From: Bacteroidota bacterium
GTDB taxonomy: Bacteria; Bacteroidota; Bacteroidia; Bacteroidales; FEN-979
Assembly: GCA_026391805.1 (NCBI GenBank)
Contig: JAPLDJ010000010.1
Span: 124,001 to 188,000, forward strand
DNA: 64,000 nucleotides
Reading direction: 5' to 3'
Positions 1-15,911 of the stretch are shown here, piece after piece. The first letter of the stretch is position 1; each line of letters begins with the position of its first letter. The notes under the pieces are model-generated. The model searched no databases and had not been told where the DNA came from. It saw nothing but the letters and a program-made list of their open reading frames with translations. The position numbers were made by a program, and so were the translations under genes.

Positions 1-2672
1 ACGGCACGGTTGATTATTTTTATCAGAGCAAGATCTATAACAGATTGAACATGCCATTTCTGGATTCCCTTAAAGGCACTTCCTTCTTTCGCGATTATTG
101 TGAGGGTGCTGATAAAACAGTTGTTTTTTATAATAACCATTACGAAATTCTTGTCATAGACCATAACAAACATGTCACGAGGTATGATCTTAATTCTAAA
201 TTCCGTGACCAACCTAATCCGGGGCAATTATGTTATCTGTCAAATTCACCGGATGGCGGATATCTTCTCTGGGGTGGAAATGGCATATATCATATGAAAA
301 AACTATCGGAGAAGCCTACCCGGGTTTTTATTTACAATGGTGTGGAAAACATATTTCCTGCAGATAACAAGGACTATTATTTGAACATTCCTGATCGGGG
401 ACTTTTTTTATTCAACGGGACATCCATTTCAGCATCCATCCAGCTACCTTTCAAAGTCCCTTATTCAATAATTAAAGTCAAATCGGTAATGAAAGACAAC
501 GAAGGCTTTTTATGGATAGTTACATTCGATGAAGGAACCTTCTGCATGAAAAATGACCGGGTAATTCACCATTTTGACATACAGGAAGGGCAGGCAATTA
601 TACAGGATAACGAAAATAACATCTGGATCAGCTCAATGAACAGCGGTATATACAAGATCAATCCCAATATTCTTAAGCACCAACACTTATCTGTAAGTTC
701 ATTCCAAAACAGAGGAGTTACGACACTCTTTTCTGATCCTGATGATGGTATCTGGTTCACGAATGGTAAGCAACTCTACTTGATGAAGAATGGTAAAGTC
801 AGGCTGTTCAATGCTGAGATTCCATTGAATTCCCTGAACCTCATCTTCAAAATCAATGATCTTCTGATTGCTGGCGAAAAAGGATTTAAACTGTTTCTTT
901 TTGATGGGATCCGATCGGATAAGTTTTTACCGGATATTAGTTGTAAACCGACAATTATCTGCCGTTTGGAAAACGAATCCTCGAAATGTCTGAAGAAGTT
1001 TTCTACGAATTCCGCACATGATCTTCTTGCATCATACGGTGGATTCAACATTCTGCTTTTCCGACCCCAAAAGCAACTGAAGCCGATAATGGATTTAAAT
1101 ATAAGTAAGAAGATATTCAATGTGTTTTTTAATCTTCGGGATGAACTTGTCATAAACTCCTGCGAGAATTTCATATTAAGGAATGATTCTGTGGTTCCGT
1201 TTGAAGAGTTGTCATTTCTGAATAATAAAGTCATTACGAATTATCTGGTTCTGAATAAAAAGGTGGAATTGTTCAATGTCGAGAACGACAGCATCTACCT
1301 TAAACGGGATCAGGAAATTGTTAACCTTACACAGGTTATCGGGTTGCCGGTTGAACTCCAGATCAGAAATATAACGTATGACGACCCGGTTTTATATTTT
1401 ACCACATTCCGGAACATTTACAAGATCGACAATCTCTTACCAGTCTTTGAAAAGAAGCCGGTCCGGCTTCAAATATTGGATATCAATTTCAGGAATATTC
1501 AGGATATTGTGGTCCGGAACGATTCACTGTACATTGCTTCTGATGACGGTTTGACAGTTATTCCCGAAAAAATAATCGATGAAATTCCTCCTCATACGCC
1601 TATTCCGTATATTCAATCCATCCTGGTCAATGACCACGAGGCTGATATTTCAAAAAATGAAATCATAATCGGTGGTTCGGCAAAAGCCAAATTTACTTTC
1701 AGTTGCATAAATTATTCCTCTTCGCCCGTGGTTTTTTCATATATGCTTGCAGGCATTGACAAGGAATGGACAATGGGAACTGCGCGAAGCATTGTTTACC
1801 AGGACCTGCCCAAAGGGGATTATGTTTTTAAAATGCGGGTACGAAAACCGACCGGGGCATGGAGTAACCCGGTTGAATATCACATACAGGTAAAAGCCGT
1901 TTTCTGGCGACATCCGTTATTTTTCACTGCACTTCTCTTAATCCTTACTGCAATTATTGTCATTTCTGTCATCCGGAGAAAGAATGCGCAGATCAGGCGC
2001 CGGGAGATCGACCACCAGCTTGTTACGCTTGAGCAGAAGGCGCTTCAGTCGATGATGAACCCGCATTTCATCTTTAATTCCCTCGGATCCATTCAGAATT
2101 ACCTCCTGCAGAAAAGAACAGGTGAAGCCGGGCTGTACCTTTCCCAGTTTGCCCGCCTGATACGGCAAAACCTTAATGCCATTAATACAGCCATGATCAA
2201 CCTCGAGGAAGAGGTTGACCGTCTGAAAAATTACCTTGACCTGGAGAAGATGCGGCTGGGTGATAAATTTGAATACCTGATTGAGATCGATGATGATATT
2301 GAACCCGATGAGGTCTACATTCCTTCCATGATCATCCAGCCCTTTGCCGAAAATTCGATCTGGCACGGGATTACGCCATTGGAGGAAAAGGGTTTGATTA
2401 ACATAAAATTTCAAAAGGAGTCTGAAATTTCCTTGAGGATCATCGTGGAAGATAACGGCATCGGGATGAAACAGTCAGAAGGCTACTCAGCAAAGTCCGA
2501 GAGCCATCTGCACCTTGGTATGGAGATGACACGCAAACGGCTGGATCTGCTCGGAAAGAAGTTTAATGTCCCTACCCGGATCGAATATTGTGATATGTTT
2601 CCCGGCAAACCCAATCCCGGCACCCGGGTCATCCTGATCGTGCCGTTCACTTACAGCGAGAACGTTAGCTGA
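1..2672 (+). CDS. Sensor histidine kinase with propeller and Y_Y_Y domains (5' partial)
   Basis: The frame is open from the first base of the window, so the start lies upstream; the TTG at 45 and ATG at 51 are not convincing starts. The N-terminal part holds beta-propeller repeats of the two-component-regulator type (for example WISSMNSGIYKI near nt 630). A Y_Y_Y-type Ig fold covers about nt 1720-1890, one membrane segment about nt 1910-1970, and then a LytS/YehU-type His_kinase domain with the phospho-acceptor motif MNPHFIFNSLGS (His near nt 2064) and a C-terminal HATPase (NSIWHG, DNGIGM). Such proteins sense extracytoplasmic ligands and usually pass phosphate to a LytTR response regulator; none is in the window. 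A tandem repeat starts directly after the stop codon. Confidence 0.9.
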   Translation, partial: GTVDYFYQSKIYNRLNMPFLDSLKGTSFFRDYCEGADKTVVFYNNHYEILVIDHNKHVTRYDLNSKFRDQPNPGQLCYLSNSPDGGYLLWGGNGIYHMKKLSEKPTRVFIYNGVENIFPADNKDYYLNIPDRGLFLFNGTSISASIQLPFKVPYSIIKVKSVMKDNEGFLWIVTFDEGTFCMKNDRVIHHFDIQEGQAIIQDNENNIWISSMNSGIYKINPNILKHQHLSVSSFQNRGVTTLFSDPDDGIWFTNGKQLYLMKNGKVRLFNAEIPLNSLNLIFKINDLLIAGEKGFKLFLFDGIRSDKFLPDISCKPTIICRLENESSKCLKKFSTNSAHDLLASYGGFNILLFRPQKQLKPIMDLNISKKIFNVFFNLRDELVINSCENFILRNDSVVPFEELSFLNNKVITNYLVLNKKVELFNVENDSIYLKRDQEIVNLTQVIGLPVELQIRNITYDDPVLYFTTFRNIYKIDNLLPVFEKKPVRLQILDINFRNIQDIVVRNDSLYIASDDGLTVIPEKIIDEIPPHTPIPYIQSILVNDHEADISKNEIIIGGSAKAKFTFSCINYSSSPVVFSYMLAGIDKEWTMGTARSIVYQDLPKGDYVFKMRVRKPTGAWSNPVEYHIQVKAVFWRHPLFFTALLLILTAIIVISVIRRKNAQIRRREIDHQLVTLEQKALQSMMNPHFIFNSLGSIQNYLLQKRTGEAGLYLSQFARLIRQNLNAINTAMINLEEEVDRLKNYLDLEKMRLGDKFEYLIEIDDDIEPDEVYIPSMIIQPFAENSIWHGITPLEEKGLINIKFQKESEISLRIIVEDNGIGMKQSEGYSAKSESHLHLGMEMTRKRLDLLGKKFNVPTRIEYCDMFPGKPNPGTRVILIVPFTYSENVS

Positions 2673-2939: not shown

Positions 2940-3797
2940 TCAAAGTGCTCTGATGGGCCTGACATGACATTTAATATTCTTACTTAGTACAGCAGTGTCT
3001 CCATTGGCAAAATTTAACCCCCAGGCGTTGTCCTTATCCGATTGACTCGAACTCCAGTAATCGGCATTCTCGAAACCACCAACCACAATTCTTTGCTGGT
3101 ACAGCAGTTTGAGTTCAAATTTTGATGGCAGGTACCAATCGCCCGTGTCATAGACCGTTCTCATCTTCCTGCAGATCCATGCGGCGGAAGCCGTATCGGA
3201 ACATAATTGAACAATGGCAAGAGTATATGAAAAACCTGCTCCGGGACCATCCTTGGTGGTATCAGGGATCAATGTGCCAGGACAACCCCAGGTTGCACCG
3301 GAACTTTCATCCGACAGGGCGGCCACAAGGCCTCTGACGCCCGCTGAATCGACATAAAAAACAACGCCTCCCCCGATTTTCTCTCCGACCGAAAATACCG
3401 GTGCCTTTAATGTCTTGAAAGTGGTCTCATCGCCATATGCCGTACCTTTTTTCGTCGTGACATAAGGCCGTAAATAATACATTGCGACAGATGCCAGGCC
3501 GTGAATGTTACCGATAAAGGCTTGCTTCCCATAGCCATTATTTGTGGTATCATTGCTAACAGTGGGCGACGGCCTGGTGCTCCAGCAAACTCCCTTCACA
3601 TTTATCGTGTCTTCGTCATCCGCAACAATGGTTACGTGAACGAGCGCGGAATTGTATGTGATGGAATAGACCGAATCGGTATTCAGCCTGTATCCGATCG
3701 TACAGCAGACTTTTTTGCAACCGGGGATCGATAAGAGAAAAAGTCCGGTGCCAAAAGTTATCATGATCAGTGAAATAATCCAATCTTTTCTGCTCAT
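2940..3797 (-). CDS. Lipoprotein with C-terminal DUF1566/Fibrobacter-type domain
   Basis: 285 residues. The N-terminus is a lipoprotein signal: a hydrophobic stretch followed by the lipobox LSIPGC, so the mature protein should be lipid-anchored at about Cys27. Residues about 35-130 resemble an Ig/fibronectin-like fold. The C-terminal half has the DUF1566-like pattern common in Bacteroidota and Fibrobacteres (GGGVVFYVD, DWYLPSKFEL, YWSSSQSDKDNAWGLNF, HVRPIRA), a C-type-lectin-like fold. It is the last gene of the surface-protein operon, 21 bp after the beta-barrel gene. Its function is not known; a surface-exposed binding or accessory lipoprotein is the best inference. Confidence 0.75.
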   Translation of the reverse strand: MSRKDWIISLIMITFGTGLFLLSIPGCKKVCCTIGYRLNTDSVYSITYNSALVHVTIVADDEDTINVKGVCWSTRPSPTVSNDTTNNGYGKQAFIGNIHGLASVAMYYLRPYVTTKKGTAYGDETTFKTLKAPVFSVGEKIGGGVVFYVDSAGVRGLVAALSDESSGATWGCPGTLIPDTTKDGPGAGFSYTLAIVQLCSDTASAAWICRKMRTVYDTGDWYLPSKFELKLLYQQRIVVGGFENADYWSSSQSDKDNAWGLNFANGDTAVLSKNIKCHVRPIRAL

Positions 3798-3818
3798 AGA
3801 TCCTCCTTTAACACTCTT

Positions 3819-5885
3819 TTACCATCTGACCTCAAATATTATCCTGCCTATAAACTCGTTATAGCTTTTGACGCACTCGATATTATTTTTAAAGGTATTT
3901 TTCTCCAGTTGGATTTCAAGATCTCCTCCCTTCCACATCTTCACGCGTGAATTCAGAAAATAACCCAGCTTATCCTGACCGGGGTTTTGTTTCGACCACA
4001 TGATCCCAAGCGAGTTCTGCCATCTCTCTTTGAAAGCATTGTAGGTCCCTTTCAGCATCAGGTTGAATATATCTTCATTCTGTTCAGAAATTTTTGATTG
4101 GGAATAATTTACGCTGAATTCAAAACTTAAGGGTATTACCATCGAAAAATTCTGGTTTAAGGAATAGGAGTTGGTCCTGGAGAGGTTTTTAGCGGTGTCT
4201 TTTACCAGGTTCCCGTACTGCCGGCAGAACATAACGGTGGTTGTGGCATCAAGGCTACCCATCTTATATTGGTAACCGGCCATGGCATTGACCAGGTAAG
4301 CTGAATTATCCTGGTTAAAATATTCCCCCCTCGTTTTCTGAAAATTCGGCATGTACATGGCCGTAAAAAAGGGGGCCTTCCGTAACCGTAAGCTGGCGCT
4401 GATCCCATATGCCTCCATCGTCGTGGTCCCGGCTTTCCATCCGATCAGGTTGTCCCTGCTGTGCCTGAAGAAAAACGACATCATAAGCTGGCGTTTTGCA
4501 AAACTCTGATCAATTCGGCCGTTGTATATCAACCTGTCGGCGATCAGGTTCGGATTGCCAAGCGTATGGTAGCCGGAACCGATTTTTTTTATTCCCGCGG
4601 TGATCGTGGTCGTACTCAGGTTCAATCCGATGTTGCCGCTGTAGGCGAAATCATAGGAGGAACTGGCATTCACATTAAAATATTTAACAAGCCCGGCAGA
4701 GATCCCCGAAATTTTCAGATCAAAATTCTCCGACTGCGTATTGTTTGTATAGAGTGAAGCAGCTGCCTCTCCCTCGATCGTGAATTTATTCTTAAAGAGA
4801 TTTAGTTTTCCTTCAGTTGCAAGGATATGATTGGAATGGGGATAGATGTACAACGAATCGCTGACAAGGCTATCCTGCAGTGAGCTCGCTTTATCTTCAA
4901 CCCGCAGATAGGAAAAATAAAGATGGCTTTCATTTTTCCTGCCCACTCCCAGCCTTACAAACAAAAGATTGCGCTTATAGGATGGGTCGGAAGTGCTGTT
5001 GATGTCGACTGCCCGATTTACCTTTCCCATTGCAAATGCTGCATAGAACAAGCCCGGGTTTAATTCAATGTTCGCCCCCGACACGGGGATCCCCTCAACT
5101 GTCAGCTCGCTGTAATTGGGCCTGCATTTCCCGATCTCCAGGGTGGGAAAGATGGAGAGAAATCGCCCCATTTTTGAATAGGCAACACCCTTGGCAAGAT
5201 CGGTAGCTTTTCCGGTAAGTTGTTGCGGGGATTTTACAAGAGACTGTGCCTGTTTGATCGCATTGTTGGCTTCCGCAAGTTTTGCTTTCACCTGTTCAAA
5301 CTTTGCTTTCGTCTTTGCGACTTTTGCTTCCGCCTGATCCAATTTGGATTTCGCCTTCCGTAAACGACTCTTGGCTATTGCTGAAGCAGTGTCTGAAAGA
5401 TTCTTTTTCTCCTTGTCATATTCCTTCATGGCTTCATCGCGCAGTTTGGTTTCATTCAGGAGGTCCGATTTCAGCAGGTCCTGGGTTTTTGTAAGATCAT
5501 CTTTGGCTTTGACCAATTCAGGAGGCAGTTTTGAAGTAGCAAAAGCTGTAGCTTTTTTTATTCCGTTGCTTTTCAGTGCCGCTGCATCCAGGTATATCCT
5601 GAAATTATTTATGCTTTGCTTGAATTTGCTTTGTTCCGTGGTGACAAAGAAACTGGCTGATATCGGAATATCATAAACTGTCAGTGTCATCTGCAGGTCA
5701 TCGAGCAGGTAAGATGGCGGAACTATCCCTTCTCCGCCCTGCAGGCTTATATACTGGCCGTTGATCCGGTTGGTTCCGTGGAACTGCACCGGGGACCCCG
5801 AGTTGCCCTGCCCAATCAGGATATCGGAATACATAATAAGAAACAGAAGGAGAATGAACCCGGTTATACTTGTTTTCAACGTCAT
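3819..5885 (-). CDS. Predicted outer-membrane beta-barrel protein with long coiled coil
   Basis: 688 residues with a signal peptide (cleavage near IGQG, about residue 26). Residues about 125-220 form an Ala/Lys/Glu-rich stretch with heptad character (words such as KAKSKLDQAEAKVAKTKAK), a strong coiled-coil candidate. The rest, to the C-terminus, alternates aromatic and polar residues like beta-strands of an outer-membrane barrel and ends in FEVRW, an aromatic end typical of barrel proteins. It lies 18 bp after the DUF11 giant protein and 21 bp before the lipoprotein. I do not recognise a named family. By context it may anchor or export the giant proteins encoded upstream in the operon (inference). 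Confidence 0.6.
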   Translation of the reverse strand: MTLKTSITGFILLLFLIMYSDILIGQGNSGSPVQFHGTNRINGQYISLQGGEGIVPPSYLLDDLQMTLTVYDIPISASFFVTTEQSKFKQSINNFRIYLDAAALKSNGIKKATAFATSKLPPELVKAKDDLTKTQDLLKSDLLNETKLRDEAMKEYDKEKKNLSDTASAIAKSRLRKAKSKLDQAEAKVAKTKAKFEQVKAKLAEANNAIKQAQSLVKSPQQLTGKATDLAKGVAYSKMGRFLSIFPTLEIGKCRPNYSELTVEGIPVSGANIELNPGLFYAAFAMGKVNRAVDINSTSDPSYKRNLLFVRLGVGRKNESHLYFSYLRVEDKASSLQDSLVSDSLYIYPHSNHILATEGKLNLFKNKFTIEGEAAASLYTNNTQSENFDLKISGISAGLVKYFNVNASSSYDFAYSGNIGLNLSTTTITAGIKKIGSGYHTLGNPNLIADRLIYNGRIDQSFAKRQLMMSFFFRHSRDNLIGWKAGTTTMEAYGISASLRLRKAPFFTAMYMPNFQKTRGEYFNQDNSAYLVNAMAGYQYKMGSLDATTTVMFCRQYGNLVKDTAKNLSRTNSYSLNQNFSMVIPLSFEFSVNYSQSKISEQNEDIFNLMLKGTYNAFKERWQNSLGIMWSKQNPGQDKLGYFLNSRVKMWKGGDLEIQLEKNTFKNNIECVKSYNEFIGRIIFEVRW

Positions 5886-5903
5886 GACACCACCCGTTTG
5901 TCC

Positions 5904-8900
5904 TTATTTCCCTTCCGGAGGTTGCGAACTTTTAATGATTTTGATCAACGTGTCCGGAGTGTTATAGCCCGCGGCACCGGCGGAATCGCTTTGATACCTG
6001 CCTTCGGGATACATAATTCCTTTGACCGGGGATTCCGGAAGTTTTAAATTGCTCCCTGGCTTTGCCTTTTTTTCCTTTTTCCCCTTCTGCTTCGGCATGT
6101 CAATTTTCCCGTTATCCTTTTCCTTCCCTTTGACGGGCTGAACCTGACCATTACCCTGCCATGGCTCCGGATAGACGGTGTAGCAGATCAGCGTGTCGCA
6201 TGTTCTGCAGGTTGTATCGGTGAATGACCACCTGACGCAGAAATTGATGGTGTCCTTGCAGCATTGATTCGGGAACACTTTGGGGAAAACGATCCGGAAA
6301 TAGACCTCTTCACTGCTCAGGTATTTCCGCGACACATACTGACCATTGACCATCTTATGCCATACAAGCTCGCGCAAACTGCCGCTGAATGGCGATCCCG
6401 CGTATGTGTTCAAATACGGGCTGACCCATGAACCATTCGGAGGATTCCAGTCGATCTGTGAAGTCTGGTAAGGCCCGGGATTGTTGGTAGGCAACATGCT
6501 ACCGAAAAAGATGTTGGATGGTACGCACCTTTCACAACCTGCTTGTTCATTCATGTAAAAATTCACCATGGCAGCTTTGATCTCATAGAGCCGATCCGGA
6601 GCAGTCGTCAGGGTTGTTTTCACATACCAGTTTTGACCCATCTTCACAACAGAATTTGGAGATATATCAATTTTAACATCTTTACAACAATTGTCACAGG
6701 AACTTTCATGTTTGATGGCAGAAGTCAAGCATGCCACATCCGATTCCCAGGGCGTTGGTTTGACAATCTGCTGAACATTATCAATAAAGTAGTACCCTGT
6801 TGATGTTACAGCGAAACTATTGCATGCTTTTAAACCATAGGATGTGCCAGGCGAGATTTGTACTTTATAATCCAGGGTCAGTTCATCACCTGGTTGTAAT
6901 TTGGTAATGGGTAAATTAGTAATAGGAGCTATTTTATATGTATAATTCGAGCCAAATTCAAATTTTACATTCCTGAGATTACCGTTAGTATTCCAACTTC
7001 CGGGTGTACAATTTGTCGTAATTCCAAGTTCGGGAATGCAAACTTTCAGATCATTATTCACCTTGACAGTGGGGTACGGATTGTTGGATGAAGGTGCGGG
7101 TACATTATTTACTTTTATATCCGGAAGGGTACCATACGGTGAATTTAATGTTGTAGAATAGGTGAGATCAAACTGACTCCCCCTGTTATTTGGATTATTC
7201 CTGTCCAGTATCATCCTGTCATCTGCAGGGCCATATCCAAAGTTTATCGGTAGGAGGTCAAATAAAATTACATCACTGACAGGATAATTGGAGTTGTTTT
7301 TATACCAAAGCCTGTACATGACCACATCTCCGGGGGCAGCAGATGCAGATTTGCTCCAGGTGACCCCATTATCGACACTGATGAATTTTTCAGCCTTTGC
7401 TTCTGACTTGCTGGTTACAGTAACGTATACAGTGTTTGATTCCTGCTTGGGCACCACAAGATTGCCGCCGCTTACGGTAAAGAAATTTGGCACGCTGCCG
7501 GCCAGGGCCAATTGATTAACTATGACATCATACTCTATGATATAATAGGGTACGCCATTGACATCGCAGCCATAGACCCAATTGTACAATTTACAGTTTT
7601 GTGAAATCGGGGGTAAAATCCACTTCAGGTCTTGCCCGGCATGATTTGGTTGAGGTGTCACGGGGGGCCAGCTGTTTGTAACACCACTGGTCGAGATCAA
7701 ATAGTTTTCGCCATTGGCATAATCAAAATTGGAGCTTAAATGATCCGTAATTATTGCACCGGTCAGGGGCCCGCTTCCGATATTTTGTATTCTCAGGCTG
7801 AACCTTACTTTATCACCATATTTATACGATGGTTTTGGGTCGACCACAGATTTAAGTAAACAGAGTTTAGGCTCCTCTTTTGCAATCGTAAATGAGACCT
7901 CCGAAAAATCAGGCGCTAAATTGGAAGCAGGGTCATACGTTATGTCCATTCTGTTGTTTACCGGGGTACCGACAGGATTATTTTTAACGGTAAAATAAAG
8001 ATCAATGCCATACGTCCCGCCTGACTTGAGTTGATTGCTAAAAATTATGACCTTGATGGTTTTTATGATCCCGACGGTATTAGGATCGGCAAGAGTGGGC
8101 CAGGAAAATGAATTTGATGCAGGAACATTTACTATTTGAGGAACACCGCTAATACCTGTAACAAAAAGTTTACACAGCAATGGATTTGAATTATAATAGG
8201 CCGTATTAAAGCCGATACTGGTAACATCTACCTCATTCGGTATGTTATCAATAACAGTAGCTTCAGGAAGCGGGTTATTCCCGCTATTGGTAACCAGCAA
8301 CCTGTAAAAACCGTTGCATCCCGGAACAGGGTTCTCTAAATGAAGCTCTTTGCCAACCTTGCCACCCGGTGCCGCAGCCTCAAACACTACGTCAATGCAA
8401 CTCGTGTTGCTCGTAACGGTTTTACCGCATGAAGTTGCAGTGTAACTTGCGCAATTATGAGCCGTTGCCCCGGCCGGGAAAGTGAGAGCAGGATAATCGA
8501 TTTTATAACTGAATTGAACAGTTGGTGTCTCATCAGACGAAGGTAAAAAAGGGATCGTAATTTGAATATTAGGACTTGCGGCCAGGGAATTATCAGTAAT
8601 CACCGGAGCGCCTGTAGTGCAATTGACAAAGAGGACCTGGAAGCTGCCTGGTACGTAGGTAGCGCCTGCCGGGAAATAATCAGTGACAATAATGGTGCTC
8701 AGGTTTTGCTGGCCGTTTTTATTATAGTAAAACGGGGCTGGTTTTGATAAAGTCAAATAGTATTCAACAGGGTACCCGACTGCTGCATGATATTGACCGT
8801 TTTTGGGCAATGGTGAGGATTTGGTAATAATAAAAGGATTATCAACGGCAACAGCAGTAACCCTTATGATTGCGGTTTTAAGTCCGGGATCGGGTATCAC

Positions 8901-9362
8901 GTGTTTGCCTGTAGATGGTATAGTTGTCATAACACAGCTATTATCGGCGAAATCTCCATCACAGGTTGTTCCGGCCGGGAAACTCACATCTATACGGAAA
9001 TAATACATCCCCGGCTTCTTGTTTCCAACAGGCACCGTATAGGTTACTTTTGTTGATGTTGCTGTCGGGGGGCTGATTACAACGTCGGGATCAGTGCTGC
9101 TTGCTACAATTAACGGTTTAGGGATCTCATCTGTGATGATAATTACGGTCGCGGGGTCCACGCTGTCGGGGATGGTGTAGAAAATCGAATAATTGAAAGG
9201 AACACCTGAATATTCGGTAGTGACACTAACCCATTTCTTGAGGATAAATCCATTCACACGTACCTCTGATTCCTGGGGGGTGCGGTTAACCGGAGGAAAG
9301 GATGCACAATAACCTGCCCAGCAAAAGCCCAATATGAAAAGTACTGTTATTGCCTTTTTCAT
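5904..9362 (-). CDS. Giant secreted DUF11-repeat protein with C-terminal Cys-rich module
   Basis: 1152 residues with an N-terminal signal peptide (hydrophobic core, cleavage near YCAS). Several DUF11-type Ig-like repeats are visible, each with words such as VIDNIPNEV, ITDHLSSNFDY and LFDLLPINFGY, which belong to the conserved-repeat family of bacterial surface proteins. Residues about 887-1066 hold a Cys-rich module (CDNCCKD ... GCERCV ... CCKDTINFC ... SFTDTTCRTCDTLIC) also found in the two genes upstream in the operon. A basic, Lys-rich tail follows. No T9SS sorting domain is seen at the C-terminus. It is probably a cell-surface or matrix structural protein; its ligand is unknown. Confidence 0.75.
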   Translation of the reverse strand: MKKAITVLFILGFCWAGYCASFPPVNRTPQESEVRVNGFILKKWVSVTTEYSGVPFNYSIFYTIPDSVDPATVIIITDEIPKPLIVASSTDPDVVISPPTATSTKVTYTVPVGNKKPGMYYFRIDVSFPAGTTCDGDFADNSCVMTTIPSTGKHVIPDPGLKTAIIRVTAVAVDNPFIITKSSPLPKNGQYHAAVGYPVEYYLTLSKPAPFYYNKNGQQNLSTIIVTDYFPAGATYVPGSFQVLFVNCTTGAPVITDNSLAASPNIQITIPFLPSSDETPTVQFSYKIDYPALTFPAGATAHNCASYTATSCGKTVTSNTSCIDVVFEAAAPGGKVGKELHLENPVPGCNGFYRLLVTNSGNNPLPEATVIDNIPNEVDVTSIGFNTAYYNSNPLLCKLFVTGISGVPQIVNVPASNSFSWPTLADPNTVGIIKTIKVIIFSNQLKSGGTYGIDLYFTVKNNPVGTPVNNRMDITYDPASNLAPDFSEVSFTIAKEEPKLCLLKSVVDPKPSYKYGDKVRFSLRIQNIGSGPLTGAIITDHLSSNFDYANGENYLISTSGVTNSWPPVTPQPNHAGQDLKWILPPISQNCKLYNWVYGCDVNGVPYYIIEYDVIVNQLALAGSVPNFFTVSGGNLVVPKQESNTVYVTVTSKSEAKAEKFISVDNGVTWSKSASAAPGDVVMYRLWYKNNSNYPVSDVILFDLLPINFGYGPADDRMILDRNNPNNRGSQFDLTYSTTLNSPYGTLPDIKVNNVPAPSSNNPYPTVKVNNDLKVCIPELGITTNCTPGSWNTNGNLRNVKFEFGSNYTYKIAPITNLPITKLQPGDELTLDYKVQISPGTSYGLKACNSFAVTSTGYYFIDNVQQIVKPTPWESDVACLTSAIKHESSCDNCCKDVKIDISPNSVVKMGQNWYVKTTLTTAPDRLYEIKAAMVNFYMNEQAGCERCVPSNIFFGSMLPTNNPGPYQTSQIDWNPPNGSWVSPYLNTYAGSPFSGSLRELVWHKMVNGQYVSRKYLSSEEVYFRIVFPKVFPNQCCKDTINFCVRWSFTDTTCRTCDTLICYTVYPEPWQGNGQVQPVKGKEKDNGKIDMPKQKGKKEKKAKPGSNLKLPESPVKGIMYPEGRYQSDSAGAAGYNTPDTLIKIIKSSQPPEGK

Positions 9363-9372
9363 TTTTGCAGGT

Positions 9373-11283
9373 TTATTTGTTATTCAAAATCGAATGCTTC
9401 TGATCTGTTTTCAGGGTTGATTCCTGTGGAATCAGGTACGCTGCAAAGTTGTCGGGCGAACGCCATCCTTTCTGTTCATCTTTGGTCTGCTCCCTGTTGT
9501 ATCCCATTCCATCTCTCACTTGCGGGTAATACGGTCCTTTGCCTGGTGAATTTTCGTTGTACCCTATTTTTAAAGTGCTTACGGGACTTCTCTGGAACCG
9601 GAAACAGATCACCGTATCGCAGGTGATACAGGCTGAATCGGTGAAGGAAAACCGGATGCACATTTTTATCGAGTCCTGGCAACAGCCGGTGAGTGGATTC
9701 GTGTCCGGCAGGATGATGGGAAAATGAAAAGGCACATGATCGACATTGCACTTGTTCCCCTTCCAGATGATCTCCCTGCTGTAGGTATATGGAGGAGTCA
9801 ATGTCAGCGCGGGGGTTAAGCATCCGATCGATGAAACCGGGCTGGTGAAATTACCGAACCTGCTGCTTGGCCAAACGCAGAAAGGACAATAATTTACGCC
9901 ATTGGGAGGATTGTTTATGGAAAAAACGTTGTAGGAAAAAGATACGATCTCGGCCTGGATCTTACAGATCGGTTTAGGACCGGCTGTCATCACTCCGTGC
10001 AGGCAATAATTATTGGCAGAATCTTCATGGATCTTCAGGTTGTCGACCTGCCTTGTAAACCCATCGCAGCATCCGCAATCAGGCAGACTGTCAATTTGCC
10101 AGGGCACCGGGGCACTGCATGATGTCTTTATGCCATTCGTAGTGCAGGTGCAGCCATAGTCAATTTGAAAAGAAAAGGGCAGGATGATATTTGAGATATT
10201 GAAGGTAATAGGGGGGATCAATGGGCCAGAGGTTAATGGTAAGTAAGAAGCGGCAGTTACCGGATTGGGTGGACTGGCATTGCTGATCGTTGCTGATCCT
10301 GGTCCCGGGAGGACTTCCAGGTAAGGCATTCCTGGTTGAAAACCACTACCGGCACCAGCACCTGTATTGTACGTTCCCAGAGAACAGGTACAGTTATTGG
10401 CAGTAATGTTATCCCTGAAAAATACCGTCACTTTATACTTTGTTGCACCCAGTTGATCCTTCCCGTCGCAAACGACATGCACAGAGTCTATGTAAGCTTC
10501 GCACTGGTTGTTGGAATAGACGAAATTCCATACCTCGCTTTTCCTGGAATTGGTTTTTGTACTGGCCGTGACCTGCCATATGTACATTTGATTTGGAGAA
10601 AATTGCTCTTTTGCACTGGGGGACCATTGATAATAAGGAGTAGGAAGATCAGCCTTTTCAAAAAACAGCGGGTTGGATTCAGGCGGTTCACTAATGGATT
10701 GGTTATCGCGGGAGCGATAGATCCGGAGCGTGTATGTTACAATTTCCTTTGAAGGTTGCGGCTCCCACTGGAAAACCGGGTTGTCTTCCTTCAGCGTGGA
10801 TCCTTTTGTCGGGAAGGTCAGGTTTAACATCCCCAGGTTCTGAATGGGCTGCTCGATGCAATCCCTTGCCAGTTCCTTATTGGTCTTGGCATCAAAGGCA
10901 ACCACACAGATCACGTAGATGCCGTCGGGTGCTGTGCCTGTCTTCTGAATGATATCCTGGTACTTTTTTATATAGACATGGCTTGTCACCGGTTGCACTT
11001 CAGTTGTATTGACCCGGTGAGGGCCGTTTTTCACCAGGAAGGAAGAACTGGTCCCATCGGCGATAAGTCCGTCCCTTTTCTCCGTAATTGTTCCTCTGAG
11101 GTAAATGGTCGCATCGGTCCCGCTGTTGTAAATGGTAAGGTTCCAAAGCTCTTCAATATTCATTTGACCGGGAGGCGGTTGAAACAAGGTCAGGGTGAAT
11201 TGCGGATTCTGCGCATGAATGCCGGGAATCAAAAGGATGACCAGTAAACCCGACAAGATCAGAAAGAAGATTTGCCTTTTCAT
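9373..11283 (-). CDS. Secreted protein with Ig/Fn-like domains and Cys-rich module
   Basis: 636 residues from the ATG at 11283; an upstream ATG at 11340 is in frame, but the version from 11283 gives a clean signal peptide (MKRQIFFLILSG..., cleavage after IHAQ). Residues about 30-270 look like fibronectin/Ig-type beta domains (for example YTLRIYRSRDNQS, YIWQVTASTKT). The Cys-rich module lies at about 401-564 and ends with CCQDSIKMC and SFTDSACITCDTVIC, clearly related to the ends of the neighbouring giants. The stop is 10 bp before the DUF11 gene start. Function unknown; likely a structural partner of the two giant proteins. Confidence 0.7.
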   Translation of the reverse strand: MKRQIFFLILSGLLVILLIPGIHAQNPQFTLTLFQPPPGQMNIEELWNLTIYNSGTDATIYLRGTITEKRDGLIADGTSSSFLVKNGPHRVNTTEVQPVTSHVYIKKYQDIIQKTGTAPDGIYVICVVAFDAKTNKELARDCIEQPIQNLGMLNLTFPTKGSTLKEDNPVFQWEPQPSKEIVTYTLRIYRSRDNQSISEPPESNPLFFEKADLPTPYYQWSPSAKEQFSPNQMYIWQVTASTKTNSRKSEVWNFVYSNNQCEAYIDSVHVVCDGKDQLGATKYKVTVFFRDNITANNCTCSLGTYNTGAGAGSGFQPGMPYLEVLPGPGSATISNASPPNPVTAASYLPLTSGPLIPPITFNISNIILPFSFQIDYGCTCTTNGIKTSCSAPVPWQIDSLPDCGCCDGFTRQVDNLKIHEDSANNYCLHGVMTAGPKPICKIQAEIVSFSYNVFSINNPPNGVNYCPFCVWPSSRFGNFTSPVSSIGCLTPALTLTPPYTYSREIIWKGNKCNVDHVPFHFPIILPDTNPLTGCCQDSIKMCIRFSFTDSACITCDTVICFRFQRSPVSTLKIGYNENSPGKGPYYPQVRDGMGYNREQTKDEQKGWRSPDNFAAYLIPQESTLKTDQKHSILNNK

Positions 11284-11363
11284 AATCTGTCTTTTTATTA
11301 ATGATTTGATTTGAATAATTTCAAGATTCTTATTTTCCATGTTTCATTATGGGTGGTCGACAT

Positions 11364-14300
11364 TTATTTCCCACCCCCTTTTTTTATTTTGCTTTTTTTC
11401 GGGATGACCATCTGTTTATTTTGCTCCAGCTTCCGGAGATCCTTCTCCCATTGCTCCGTGCTTTCATTTTGGATCACCACGGTGTTGGCGCCCTGGTATT
11501 GCTGTATGATCGTAAAGCATTTCAGGGTATCGCAAACCCGGCAGGTGGTATCGGTAAATGAGTACCGGATGCAGAAATGGATGGTGTCGGTGCAGCACTT
11601 GTTTGGATAGACCTGTGGTACGACCACCTGGAAACCTACATTCTCGCCCCCTAATTTAGGCCTGGAAACAAACTGGCCGTCCTTCAACTTGTGCCAGACA
11701 AATTCCCTCGGGCTGGTAAAGAGATCGCCTGTCGTATAATGGGTTTGTATCGGATTTATCAGCGGTCCTGAAGGCGGGTTCCAGTTGATTTGTGATGACG
11801 GGTTCGAGCTCGTGCTGACAGGCATCAGGCTGCCGAAGTCCATCGTCGGCGTTACACATCGTTCGCAGCCGGCCTGGGTATTCATATAGAAGTTCGCGAT
11901 GGCTGCCTTGATCTCGTAAAGCTTGTCCGGCTCTGTGGCAAGGGTTGAATTGAGGATCCATTTGTTGTTGACTTTCTCAAGAACCGCCGTAACCGTGATC
12001 TTAAAGTCTTTACAGCAGTTGTCACACCCCACCGGTTCAGTACATGGCTTGACATAAAGACAGAAATCTTTTGAAGTGCTCGTACAATTGAACTGGTTCG
12101 TCACTGTCACATGGATCAAATGATTCCCGAGAGTCCCGGGTAAAAAATCAAGTTTTTCCTTGGTCCCCGTGTTACCCACCACCTGGGCGCTGTTATCGTA
12201 CCAGGTAATGACCGGGTAAGCAAATGGATAATCGTTACAGGGGGGTAAGGAATCCAGCGGCAACGGGATATAGAGCTGGAATCTGTCGGTGGGGCATATC
12301 GTATCACACCCCGTCGGGAATAGACTCAGGTCGGGGTTGGGAAAAATAAAACCTGCACTGGCTGATGCACTGCACCCGTATAGCTTGTCTGTTATGGTCA
12401 GACCGTAATAACCCGGCAGGAATGCATCAATGGTTGGGGTGGTCTCCCCGGTTGACCACAGGTAGTCAAAGGTACTCGTCGCCGGTGTAATCACGGGCGT
12501 CAGGATATGATGAAGGCCTTCACAAATACCCAGAGGGGTTAGGGTTACTGTTGGTTGCGGGTAAAACCAGATGCAAATGGTATCCCTTGCGACACAATGA
12601 GGAGGATTATTATCTGTTACAGTAACGATGTACTGATAGGCGGCGGGTAACGAGGAAGGCAACGTTATATTAACAAGCGTTGGATTAGTGTTGCTTAGAG
12701 TGAATTGAGAGGGTGTGGGGTTCGGGCCTGCCGTCCAAGAATAGGAATATGAAGGATTTGATACGGTTGACAAATAGAATTGCTGAACCGACGACACATC
12801 AGCACAATAGCGGCGTTCACCCGTAATCTTAGCGACAGGCGGGGTGTACGTGAGGATAAAGATGCTGTTGGACAGAATATGACATCCGGCTCCACTTTTG
12901 TCAGTCATTTCCAACTGGTATTTGCCTGCTCTGGTCGCCAGGTATGTACTGGAAGTCCCATTTGGTAGTGGAATGTTAATGTCATTCCTTTTCCACTGGT
13001 AAACATAGCCCGGAGTTCCTTGCATATTCATTGAAACCAGGTTGGCAGAGCCTCCCGGGCAGATCGTTGCAGGGACCCCAATGGAGCAGCTGAATTGGTC
13101 TACCAGAACCGGGTGTGTGACCGAACATACATAATCGCCGGTTAAAGTCAGTGTCACCGGGTGGCTTAGCGCATTGGTGGTGTATTCTTTTTGTGTGACT
13201 GAAAGGTAGGAGGTCGTGGAGGAGGTGGGAAAGTCGCCAAAATCCCATAGATAACTGTAATTCGGATCATTTGGGACAGCTATTAAGGTGCCGGGCTGGT
13301 TCCTGCAAAAAGTAATCGGATCGAAATCCGGCATAAAGATCGATACCGGCATAATAGCAGTGCATAAGGAAGAACGAACCTCAAGGGTAAAATTGTAGAT
13401 TCCTCCTTTGGTAACTTGTATAATTGGGTCTTTGCTGGTGTTGCTGGTAGCAGAAATATAACTGACAGTTCCGGGTCCTGATATCATTGTCCAGAGACGA
13501 TAAATTACGAGAGCGGAGGGAGTAGTATTGTCATGTAATGAAATTGTTTTAGTATTGCCATTGCAATTATTAACGTATAAATCAGGAATGATATCGCATG
13601 TTGTTGTTTGGATACCTCCTTGTCCCGTGCAGCTAAGAACATCAAGATAAATTATATTGGACGTGTCTTTACAATTATTATTTCCGGTCACAATAACATA
13701 AAAGGAATAAGAGCCAACAGGATATGATGTACAATTAATGGTTACGGGATTTGATGTTCCGAGAGTCGTGGGATACCATTGATAAGTGTACCCCGGACCT
13801 GATGTTGCGGTGAGCGTGAGGGTATGGGGAGTGGTGCCATCGTAACACCAATACAGCGGATCATTTGTCGTGACGGTAACTTTAGGGCGAACGGAGATTG
13901 TATTAACCGTAAAGATGCAAGACCCTTCACAGTTTGTTACTTTTAATTTTACATTATTTATCGTAGGAGAAACAGGATCTCCATGCCATCTTATGGTCAC
14001 ATTATTCCCTGACTGGGATATTATACTTCCGTAACTTGTATTTGGCGTTAAAATTGACCATTCAAGTCCCCCCGGGGGTACCGAGCCATTTGCTGTATAA
14101 GTGTCAATATCATCAACACAGACATCATCATCTCCGGTTATTAAAGTTGGCGGATCATAATGAAGTATGTTAATGGATTCTGTCGATGGACATATTACTC
14201 CGGGAGCGACTTCTAAATTCTGGGTTACCATTAATAACCAGGGAGAAGCGCCGTAAGTAAACTTCACAATGACGGAATCCATGTCAGGGCCAAATGTTGA

Positions 14301-15911
14301 AAGAATAGTACCGTTAATGATAGTCCAGATAAATGAAGTGCCGGTAATATTTGAGGAGACCGTATAAATAAGGTTCTCGCCGGGGCATGCCTTCACATCA
14401 CCTACTATGGGACCTAAAACCGGGGCCGCAAATACTTCAACAACTTTTATTGCAGTCGTATTGCAGACGTCGGCTGCGGAGCTTGCAGTGGCAGTAATCG
14501 TGTATTCACCTGCCTGATTCCAGGTAATAGTCGCACTGCTTCCTGATACGGTAATGGTTGAATGTCCTAATGGTGAAACACTCCAGGTGGAATTATCGCC
14601 CGGGTCCACTGTGTATGTAGGAGAATCGGTCAGGCATATATTCTCTTCTCCGTAGATCGAATAGATTGGACTGACCTTGACAATCAAGGTGCTGCTATCA
14701 TTGCAGCCTGCAAGGGGATTTTTGTAAACACACTTAACAGTATAATTTCCTTTAATATAGAATGTAATGTTGACAACCGGGGTATTCTGGTCCCTTTTAT
14801 TGTAGGCATAGGCCCCTCCTGACGGGGGATATACAGTCCACGTATAATATGTGCCCGGGAGGGTCGGTAACTGGTAACTTCCTGAAGCGCCAACGCACAG
14901 TTGAGTCGGTCCGTCAATGGGCAGGCTGGGATAAATCACCGGGACATTCAGCGTTGTCGGACCGGGACAGGTCGCTGGCGGGCAACCTTGCAACGTGACG
15001 GTCGTCGGGCCGGAATAAGCAGATTTCCATATTACCTTTATGCAGCTGGTATTCGCGGGAGGGATGATATCCCCTCCGGTGGCGGTCCAATTATATGTAG
15101 AGCAGGACATGGAGGCGCAGAAAAATGTGGATGTATCACCGGGGCATAATGTACCAAAGCAGCAGGTGGTTAGAATTTCAGGTCCGGTCTCAGGGTCTAC
15201 GACAATGACGTGTTTACAGGTGTCTGTACACCCGCAAGGCCCAATGCTATCCCTTTCACCTCCCGGGACCGGCCGGCCGGTGCCCCAGTCAGTCGCAGTG
15301 AGCGTGACCGTGTAACTGCCGGCGGCCGTGAATTTATGAACCGGGTCGGTTTCTGAAGAGCTGGTTCCATCCCCGAAATTCCATTGATAATAACATCCTG
15401 AGGTGGATTGGTTATCAAAATAGACGGAAGTATTTACACAAACCGGAGTGGGAGCAGTAAACTTTGCTTCCGGTCCGTCGATCAGGCACACCTGCTTTAT
15501 GATGGAGTCCTTGCAATTGCCCCCATCGCTTATGACTACCTTGATATAGCCTTTAACTCCCGTCCCCCAGAGGATGGTCATCGGGTTCCCGGTCGGGGTG
15601 GAGGGCGTTCCGCCCGTAACAGTCCATGTATAGGTGAAAGGTGTTGAAAGATTAGGGTAAACCGTATAAATGTGAGACGTGTTCTTGCAGGCCACGATAA
15701 ATTCCTGCAATTGGATGGGCATGTTTGAAGTATAATACGTAGTGTCTTCCTTGCAGGCATTATCTGGAGGGCAGATAGTGTCTCCGAATTTCAAAATAAA
15801 TTTGGGGCAACAGTCCGTACTGAAGCTCTGGGATTGCCCTTTCCCGGAAAAAATTAAAACAACTCCCAAAAGAAGTATAAACATCTTCAAAGAAGCGCCG
15901 AATGTTTTCAT
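11364..15911 (-). CDS. Giant secreted PKD/Ig-repeat protein with C-terminal Cys-rich module
   Basis: 1515 residues from the ATG at 15911 (the frame continues upstream to 15950, but the signal peptide MKTFGASLKMFILLLG... begins here). One canonical PKD domain lies near residues 150-235 (YQWNFGDGTSS, HKFTAAGSYTVTLTATD). At least five PKD-like/Ig-like repeats follow, each opening with a G-x(4)-C motif and a Y-x-W core (for example GPTQLCVGASG, GEENICLTD, GDVKACPGE, GDDDVCVDD, GERRYCADV). The Cys-rich module at about 1294-1470 matches those of the next two genes. The C-terminus is short, basic and Gly-rich, without a T9SS sorting domain. It is the first gene of the operon; a promoter is visible at 15948-15978. 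Confidence 0.8.
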   Translation of the reverse strand: MKTFGASLKMFILLLGVVLIFSGKGQSQSFSTDCCPKFILKFGDTICPPDNACKEDTTYYTSNMPIQLQEFIVACKNTSHIYTVYPNLSTPFTYTWTVTGGTPSTPTGNPMTILWGTGVKGYIKVVISDGGNCKDSIIKQVCLIDGPEAKFTAPTPVCVNTSVYFDNQSTSGCYYQWNFGDGTSSSETDPVHKFTAAGSYTVTLTATDWGTGRPVPGGERDSIGPCGCTDTCKHVIVVDPETGPEILTTCCFGTLCPGDTSTFFCASMSCSTYNWTATGGDIIPPANTSCIKVIWKSAYSGPTTVTLQGCPPATCPGPTTLNVPVIYPSLPIDGPTQLCVGASGSYQLPTLPGTYYTWTVYPPSGGAYAYNKRDQNTPVVNITFYIKGNYTVKCVYKNPLAGCNDSSTLIVKVSPIYSIYGEENICLTDSPTYTVDPGDNSTWSVSPLGHSTITVSGSSATITWNQAGEYTITATASSAADVCNTTAIKVVEVFAAPVLGPIVGDVKACPGENLIYTVSSNITGTSFIWTIINGTILSTFGPDMDSVIVKFTYGASPWLLMVTQNLEVAPGVICPSTESINILHYDPPTLITGDDDVCVDDIDTYTANGSVPPGGLEWSILTPNTSYGSIISQSGNNVTIRWHGDPVSPTINNVKLKVTNCEGSCIFTVNTISVRPKVTVTTNDPLYWCYDGTTPHTLTLTATSGPGYTYQWYPTTLGTSNPVTINCTSYPVGSYSFYVIVTGNNNCKDTSNIIYLDVLSCTGQGGIQTTTCDIIPDLYVNNCNGNTKTISLHDNTTPSALVIYRLWTMISGPGTVSYISATSNTSKDPIIQVTKGGIYNFTLEVRSSLCTAIMPVSIFMPDFDPITFCRNQPGTLIAVPNDPNYSYLWDFGDFPTSSTTSYLSVTQKEYTTNALSHPVTLTLTGDYVCSVTHPVLVDQFSCSIGVPATICPGGSANLVSMNMQGTPGYVYQWKRNDINIPLPNGTSSTYLATRAGKYQLEMTDKSGAGCHILSNSIFILTYTPPVAKITGERRYCADVSSVQQFYLSTVSNPSYSYSWTAGPNPTPSQFTLSNTNPTLVNITLPSSLPAAYQYIVTVTDNNPPHCVARDTICIWFYPQPTVTLTPLGICEGLHHILTPVITPATSTFDYLWSTGETTPTIDAFLPGYYGLTITDKLYGCSASASAGFIFPNPDLSLFPTGCDTICPTDRFQLYIPLPLDSLPPCNDYPFAYPVITWYDNSAQVVGNTGTKEKLDFLPGTLGNHLIHVTVTNQFNCTSTSKDFCLYVKPCTEPVGCDNCCKDFKITVTAVLEKVNNKWILNSTLATEPDKLYEIKAAIANFYMNTQAGCERCVTPTMDFGSLMPVSTSSNPSSQINWNPPSGPLINPIQTHYTTGDLFTSPREFVWHKLKDGQFVSRPKLGGENVGFQVVVPQVYPNKCCTDTIHFCIRYSFTDTTCRVCDTLKCFTIIQQYQGANTVVIQNESTEQWEKDLRKLEQNKQMVIPKKSKIKKGGGK

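What the first reader, a model, noticed from the sequence alone, without database searches (positions are those of the whole stretch)
2940..15911. Surface-protein operon with a shared, apparently new Cys-rich module
Three neighbouring secreted proteins of 636, 1152 and 1515 residues have different repeat domains (Fn-like, DUF11, PKD/Ig) but share a module of about 165-180 residues near the C-terminus with CCxDxI, FC[IV]R and SFTDTTCRxCDTLxC signatures. It is followed by short basic tails and no T9SS domain. They are co-transcribed with a coiled-coil barrel protein and a lipoprotein. The module could be an assembly or anchoring domain, with disulfides, of an unknown surface structure or secretion route.
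Basis: partly seen in the sequence, partly recalled or inferred. Interest (0 to 1): 0.75.

Follow-up and report, generated by a model that had tools for sequence, protein, structure and literature searches.

The report
TANFOR-barrel surface operon sharing new Cys domain
A Bacteroidales gene cluster encodes an outer-membrane barrel together with three large secreted proteins that share a previously unnamed cysteine-rich domain; the barrel proves to be an unrecognised, nearly constant partner of the 'TANFOR' giant proteins and toxins of this phylum, which suggests how those proteins reach the cell surface.

Summary
Five tightly packed minus-strand genes (gaps 10-23 bp) encode a PKD protein (1515 aa), a TANFOR-like protein (636), a DUF11 protein (1152), a barrel with a helical insertion (688) and an Lcl_C lipoprotein (285). 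The first three share a Cys-rich module that no Pfam or NCBIfam model covers. I found 24 copies (leave-one-locus-out E 2e-8 to 1e-49).

The larger finding lies beside the module. The barrel belongs to an unnamed outer-membrane family (56/247 genomes of the order, 152/345 of the phylum). It is an almost constant partner of TANFOR polymorphic-toxin genes: 22 of 23 TIGR02542 hits in the order lie under 1 kb downstream of a barrel on the same strand, and TANFOR is sometimes fused to the barrel. Other relatives flank RHS giants.

Module proteins next to barrels carry no recognised T9SS tail (0/11). Stand-alone module proteins, including full-length homologues of the 1152-aa protein, nearly always do (9/10). 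All 80 barrel genomes tested have SprA.

Best reading: the barrel is a dedicated carrier/anchor that works like PorP/SprF but is unrelated in sequence. TANFOR docks on it, and the module joins cargo to the TANFOR adaptor. The partnership is well supported; the export and docking steps are inference. The 'unknown secretion route' idea is weakened.

The parts
11364..15911 (-). PKD/Ig-repeat secreted protein, 1515 aa, first gene of the operon; signal peptide, no TANFOR, no T9SS tail
11490..12029 (-). Cys-rich module in the 1515-aa protein, followed by a short basic tail
9373..11283 (-). 636-aa secreted protein: TANFOR-like N-terminal half plus module (proposed adaptor)
10504..11133 (-). TANFOR-like region of the 636-aa protein
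   Evidence: E 4.9e-13 with a profile built only from other genomes' barrel-adjacent TANFOR proteins; TIGR02542 itself only 15.3 bits, cut-off 67
9580..10083 (-). Cys-rich module in the 636-aa protein
5904..9362 (-). DUF11-repeat secreted protein, 1152 aa; full-length homologue of T9SS type A cargo elsewhere, but without the T9SS tail
6153..6704 (-). Cys-rich module in the 1152-aa protein
3819..5885 (-). outer-membrane beta-barrel, 688 aa, member of an unnamed family that partners TANFOR genes
5157..5585 (-). helical (coiled-coil) insertion of the barrel, residues about 101-243; absent from the 567-aa paralogue on contig C13
2940..3797 (-). Lcl_C (DUF1566-type) lipoprotein, 285 aa; a 46% identical homologue follows the barrel in G006

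Best explanation
This is a surface-display locus of the TANFOR-barrel kind. Shown from sequence: an unnamed outer-membrane barrel family is the genomic partner of TANFOR-type giants, and here it is encoded with one TANFOR-like protein and two giants that share a new Cys-rich domain. Inferred: all the proteins cross the inner membrane by Sec. The barrel acts as a dedicated carrier/anchor (the job PorP/SprF does for type B cargo) that takes CTD-less cargo from, or together with, the T9SS translocon SprA and holds it on the surface. The TANFOR domain is the part that docks on the barrel. The 636-aa TANFOR+module protein is an adaptor. The Cys-rich module, probably a disulfide-braced beta-sandwich, joins the two module-only giants to the adaptor or to each other, replacing the T9SS tail that their relatives use. 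The lipoprotein is a surface accessory. Steps that rest on inference only: export through or with the barrel, T9SS coupling, and module-module docking.
For: (1) TANFOR genes lie next to barrels: 22/23 TIGR02542 hits (21 genes) in 247 genomes of the order are under 1 kb downstream on the same strand; all 19 TANFOR genomes have a barrel (co-occurrence P 4e-14); 9/13 hits in the phylum sample are within 11 kb, same strand. (2) The TANFOR domain is fused to the N-terminus of barrels in L130, L131, L146 and L148 and, from the broader profile, L032, L099, L144 and L145. (3) In window, G006, G584 and G406 the locus has one TANFOR+module protein plus module-only protein(s) near a barrel. (4) Module proteins in barrel loci: 0/11 with a recognised T9SS tail; stand-alone ones: 9/10. 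The 1152-aa protein aligns along its whole DUF11 part (27-30% identity) with tail-bearing proteins, so the tail was exchanged for barrel partnership. (5) 80/80 barrel genomes carry SprA, and so does this one. (6) The predicted barrel has about 22-24 strands, and the listed Foldseek hits are overwhelmingly outer-membrane barrels. (7) A neighbouring unrelated barrel being the specific shuttle/anchor is established for type B cargo (PMC9143113, PMC12618676).
Against: No experiment. SprA is common in the phylum and its base rate in barrel-free genomes was not measured, so T9SS coupling is suggestive only. Most barrel loci have no module, and one locus (G420) has the module twice in each TANFOR giant with no module-only partner, so the adaptor scheme is not universal. 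21 of 82 barrel genes have no detected TANFOR neighbour or fusion. Both structure models are low-confidence (pLDDT 51 and 58). Co-localisation counts ignore phylogenetic relatedness.
Confidence: 0.5

Rival explanations
1. Self-contained two-partner-like secretion: the barrel is itself the pore that exports TANFOR proteins, with TANFOR as an N-terminal secretion domain (like the TPS domain of two-partner secretion), independent of T9SS.
For: Adjacent barrel-cargo gene pairs, N-terminal position of TANFOR, TANFOR-barrel fusions, and cargo without recognised T9SS tails.
Against: All 80 barrel genomes tested have SprA. No POTRA or other Omp85 feature was matched. Related module proteins are T9SS type A cargo.
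Confidence: 0.2
2. The barrel is a receptor, porin or assembly factor not needed for export. The three proteins are ordinary adhesins and the module is a stalk or ligand-binding Ig-like domain spread by domain shuffling.
For: The module occurs in varied contexts, including T9SS cargo far from barrels. Foldseek hits include TonB-dependent receptors and porins.
Against: The TANFOR-barrel pairing is far too regular and includes fusions. No TonB plug/receptor Pfam model matched.
Confidence: 0.2
3. A decayed polymorphic-toxin locus: an RHS/TANFOR toxin locus like that of G006 whose toxin giants were replaced by adhesins.
For: The closest barrel homologue (48% identical, G006) sits with an SpvB-like protein and an RHS-core giant of 2722 aa plus the same Lcl_C lipoprotein.
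Against: All five window genes are intact and no toxin remnant or immunity gene was seen. Module giants with a barrel also occur in unrelated genomes (L130, L131).
Confidence: 0.1

Closest known systems
TANFOR-containing polymorphic toxins (TIGR02542; Jana, Salomon and Bosis 2020, PMC7073777)
   Same: N-terminal TANFOR-like region after a signal peptide, PKD/Fn3-type surface proteins nearby, T9SS-positive Bacteroidota
   Different: The window protein is short (636 aa), far below the TIGR02542 cut-off, and carries the Cys module instead of a recognised toxin. The enriched-domain table that I read in that paper lists no barrel.
PorP/SprF-type shuttles with type B CTD cargo (PMC9143113, PMC12618676)
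   Same: A dedicated outer-membrane barrel encoded next to its large surface protein
   Different: Barrel of 550-1000 aa, about 22-24 predicted strands, no match to TIGR03519. Cargo has no type A or B CTD, and in the order the barrel usually precedes the TANFOR gene.
DUF11-repeat T9SS type A proteins (PF01345 + PF18962)
   Same: The 1152-aa protein aligns along its whole DUF11 part, and the module has the same place after it
   Different: The window protein lost the roughly 370 residues after the module, including the sorting tail, and sits in a barrel operon
Bacteroidota SpvB-like/RHS-core giants (TIGR03696, DUF6443)
   Same: The nearest barrel relatives flank them (G006, L041, L099)
   Different: No RHS or SpvB-like protein in the window operon

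Membership tests
TANFOR polymorphic toxin | TIGR02542 match over the curated cut-off (67 bits) | tested here: not met
   15.3 bits, E 0.015; but E 4.9e-13 with an independent TANFOR profile: a divergent relative, not a member by the curated rule
TANFOR polymorphic toxin | C-terminal toxin domain, or toxin plus immunity gene just downstream | tested here: not met
   No toxin family in any of the five proteins
TANFOR-barrel locus (defined here) | TANFOR-like gene and A3-type barrel on the same strand within 3 genes | tested here: met
T9SS cargo | Type A or type B C-terminal sorting domain | tested here: not met
   No PF18962, TIGR04183 or type B match in the three window proteins; met by homologues elsewhere
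T9SS cargo | Export depends on SprA/PorV or another shuttle | not testable with these tools
   SprA gene present in this genome; dependence needs mutants
PorP/SprF shuttle | TIGR03519 match | tested here: not met
   No match for the window barrel or for its relative in L035
PorP/SprF shuttle | Encoded directly beside its large secreted cargo | tested here: met
   generally
PorP/SprF shuttle | Physical binding to its cargo | not testable with these tools
   needs co-purification
Two-partner secretion (Omp85/TpsB) | POTRA domains and Omp85 barrel | tested here: not met
   No such Pfam or NCBIfam match

The most novel reading that the evidence does not exclude
The barrel family is a new class of carrier or translocator for giant proteins without a T9SS signal, used widely by TANFOR and RHS polymorphic proteins. 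TANFOR is the signal it recognises, and the Cys-rich module is a new C-terminal sorting or docking domain that can replace the T9SS tail.
Probability: 0.3. Interest if true: 0.82.

Novelty: new variant of a known kind. Interest (0 to 1): 0.62.

Why it matters
TANFOR proteins are a published class of Bacteroidota polymorphic toxins whose way out of the cell is only a hypothesis (PMC7073777). A barrel gene that sits just upstream of nearly every TANFOR gene in this order, and is sometimes fused to the TANFOR domain, gives that question a single testable target. The module adds an unnamed domain family, and the 1152-aa protein with its relatives is a natural case of a T9SS tail being exchanged for membership in a barrel operon.

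Tried and rejected
A genome-contig scan with the three-row module alignment found no relative; its patterns were too specific, and the profile search over the phylum later found many. The pattern CCxDxI alone hits 24 places in the own genome and is uninformative. A direct hhalign of the four-row module profile against the 327-aa protein of G006 gave only P 0.05; after the profile grew, the same protein scored E 2e-8 with its own locus left out, so I accept it. The L106 hit (G179) failed that test (E 2.2) and was dropped. The module structure (pLDDT 51) and its Foldseek hits (p53-like and MSCRAMM Ig folds, TM below 0.4) are too weak to name a fold. PDB sequence searches with module and barrel profiles found nothing. 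A constant link to a LytS-type sensor kinase was rejected: 5 of 85 loci. The barrel was not found on plasmids. A SprF-style CxC tail in the barrel was looked for by eye and is not there.

Full report
OBSERVATION. The finding's five minus-strand genes exist as described: a 1515-aa PKD protein, a 636-aa protein, a 1152-aa DUF11 protein, a 688-aa barrel and a 285-aa lipoprotein, separated by 23, 10, 18 and 21 bp. Four begin with a signal-peptide-like stretch and the last with a lipobox (read from the sequence). The module is 178-181 aa in the two giants and 165 aa in the 636-aa protein, and occurs nowhere else in the genome. Pfam and NCBIfam give DUF11, PKD and Lcl_C, and nothing on the module or the barrel.

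THE MODULE IS A REAL, UNNAMED DOMAIN FAMILY. Among close relatives it is rare: 2 of 61 genomes and, beyond the own genome, one spurious hit in 247 genomes of the order. A four-row profile over 345 genomes of the phylum found it in 16. The iterated family has 24 copies, each recovered with its own locus left out (E 2e-8 to 1e-49). Aligned copies share a CC start, an SRExxW stretch and a DT(I/L)xFxIRYxFTDxxCxTCDT end. Copies in barrel loci also keep a CxxC at reference positions 56/59 (13/13, against 5-6/11 in stand-alone copies) and extra cysteines at 146, 154 and 172. Prediction gives seven strands and no helix, at low confidence.

TWO KINDS OF MODULE PROTEIN. Stand-alone proteins of about 750-1600 aa (L133-L143), mostly DUF11 + module, carry a T9SS type A sorting tail in 9 of 10 complete cases. 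Some of these tail matches are below the curated cut-off, for example L134; L139, at E 0.004, is the one counted as lacking it. The window's 1152-aa protein aligns over its whole DUF11 region with six of them at 27-30% identity, so it is a relative that lost the roughly 370 residues behind the module, tail included. The 11 module proteins in barrel loci (window 3, G006 2, G584 2, G420 2, G406 2) have no recognised tail. The contrast 0/11 versus 9/10 gives P 3e-5 by Fisher's test, ignoring relatedness.

THE BARREL. The 688-aa protein has relatives of 550-1016 aa across the phylum: 56/247 genomes of the order and 152/345 of the phylum sample (some of the weaker phylum hits may belong to a sister family of about 800 aa). 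The predicted model has about 22-24 strands and a helical hairpin at residues 101-243, with mean pLDDT 58. The listed Foldseek hits are overwhelmingly outer-membrane barrels, best E 2e-6 with low TM-scores. The helical insertion is missing in the 567-aa paralogue encoded on contig C13 of the same genome. In L109 a long helical stretch lies instead in the neighbouring TANFOR protein.

THE PARTNERSHIP. The same 247 genomes were searched with TIGR02542, a model that owes nothing to this work. All 19 TANFOR genomes have a barrel (P 4e-14), and 22 of 23 hits lie directly downstream of one on the same strand, under 1 kb and mostly about 100 bp. In the phylum sample 9 of 13 hits are within 11 kb on the same strand. 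A broader TANFOR profile, partly seeded from these loci, finds a TANFOR-like neighbour or fusion for 61 of 82 barrel genes; loci of the phylum sample were chosen in part because they had modules. An independent profile recognises the window's 636-aa protein (E 5e-13) and N-terminal TANFOR domains fused to barrels in L130, L131, L146 and L148. Jana et al. (PMC7073777) described TANFOR toxins, found SprB, Fn3, PKD and T9SS tails enriched nearby, and proposed T9SS export; the parts I read do not mention a barrel. The library holds no other paper on the TANFOR domain.

THE WINDOW'S CLASS. The closest barrel (48% identical, G006 = Bacteroidales MAG JAUXWT01) is followed by the same Lcl_C lipoprotein (46%). 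It shares its contig with a 469-aa TANFOR+module protein, a 327-aa module-only protein, an SpvB-like 2307-aa protein and an RHS-core protein of 2722 aa. L130 repeats the window's scheme almost exactly: TANFOR+module (610 aa), module-only (589 aa), then TANFOR-barrel fusion (863 aa), with no room between genes. L132 is similar over a longer stretch. L131 has two giants, each with TANFOR and two modules, next to a TANFOR-barrel fusion.

MECHANISM. Shown: gene order, domain make-up, statistical pairing, loss of the T9SS tail. Inferred: a barrel that is always paired with one class of giant, and sometimes carries that class's N-terminal domain, most simply serves to export or hold it. Neighbouring unrelated barrels do exactly this for type B T9SS cargo: SprF binds SprB, and cognate PorP/SprF proteins are needed for secretion (PMC9143113, PMC12618676). 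All 80 barrel genomes tested have SprA, which favours a carrier working with T9SS over an independent pore; the base rate of SprA was not measured here. In four of five module loci one protein carries TANFOR and module while another carries the module only. The simplest reading is an adaptor, with the module as the joint between adaptor and cargo. That last step has the weakest support (I would give it about 0.35).

VERDICT. The module is new and does travel with the barrel, but the central, more general finding is the TANFOR-barrel pair. It resembles PorP/SprF in how it probably works, without being a member: TIGR03519 is not met.

Noticed in passing
G000:C13:152196-153896; L031 7193-8896 and 9057-10553: The same genome has a second pair: a 567-aa barrel without helical insertion, downstream of a 498-aa TANFOR-like protein.
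   Followed up: partly
L029/L107, L041, L099, L103: Barrel loci with a small TANFOR protein or fusion, often a short lipoprotein, an SpvB-like protein of about 2000-2300 aa and an RHS-type giant: a second, RHS-bearing class of these loci.
   Followed up: partly
L058 3-2351, L065 11426-14203, L098 16380-18311: C-termini of giants in barrel loci with metalloprotease-like signatures: HELGHG...HTF in L058 and L098, and the related HTFSSTYG...MDYP stretch in L065.
   Followed up: no
L073, L074, L083, L084, L086, L089: A family of giants of about 1440-1500 aa with an 'LP(I/L/V)G(I/L)(Q/V/H)K(S/N)IGG'-like stretch near the start sits next to the barrel where no TANFOR was detected; possibly a TANFOR-less cargo class.
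   Followed up: no
L048-L098 (15 of 82 barrel genes): A third recurrent neighbour: a 500-770 aa Fn3-type secreted protein with an 'LRWAP' motif near its start.
   Followed up: partly
window 45-2672 (+) and the gene before it (L042 2886-3707): Two-component propeller sensor kinase and LytTR regulator converge on the operon; similar pairs lie near barrels in L033, L034 and L110, but only 5 of 85 loci have such a kinase.
   Followed up: yes
L137 6639-13313: A module protein with a T9SS tail is followed 55 bp downstream by a TANFOR-like 602-aa protein, away from any barrel: module and TANFOR are also neighbours outside barrel loci.
   Followed up: no
L097 1452-6107: A Cas9-like 1551-aa ORF lies close to a barrel gene; probably coincidence.
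   Followed up: no
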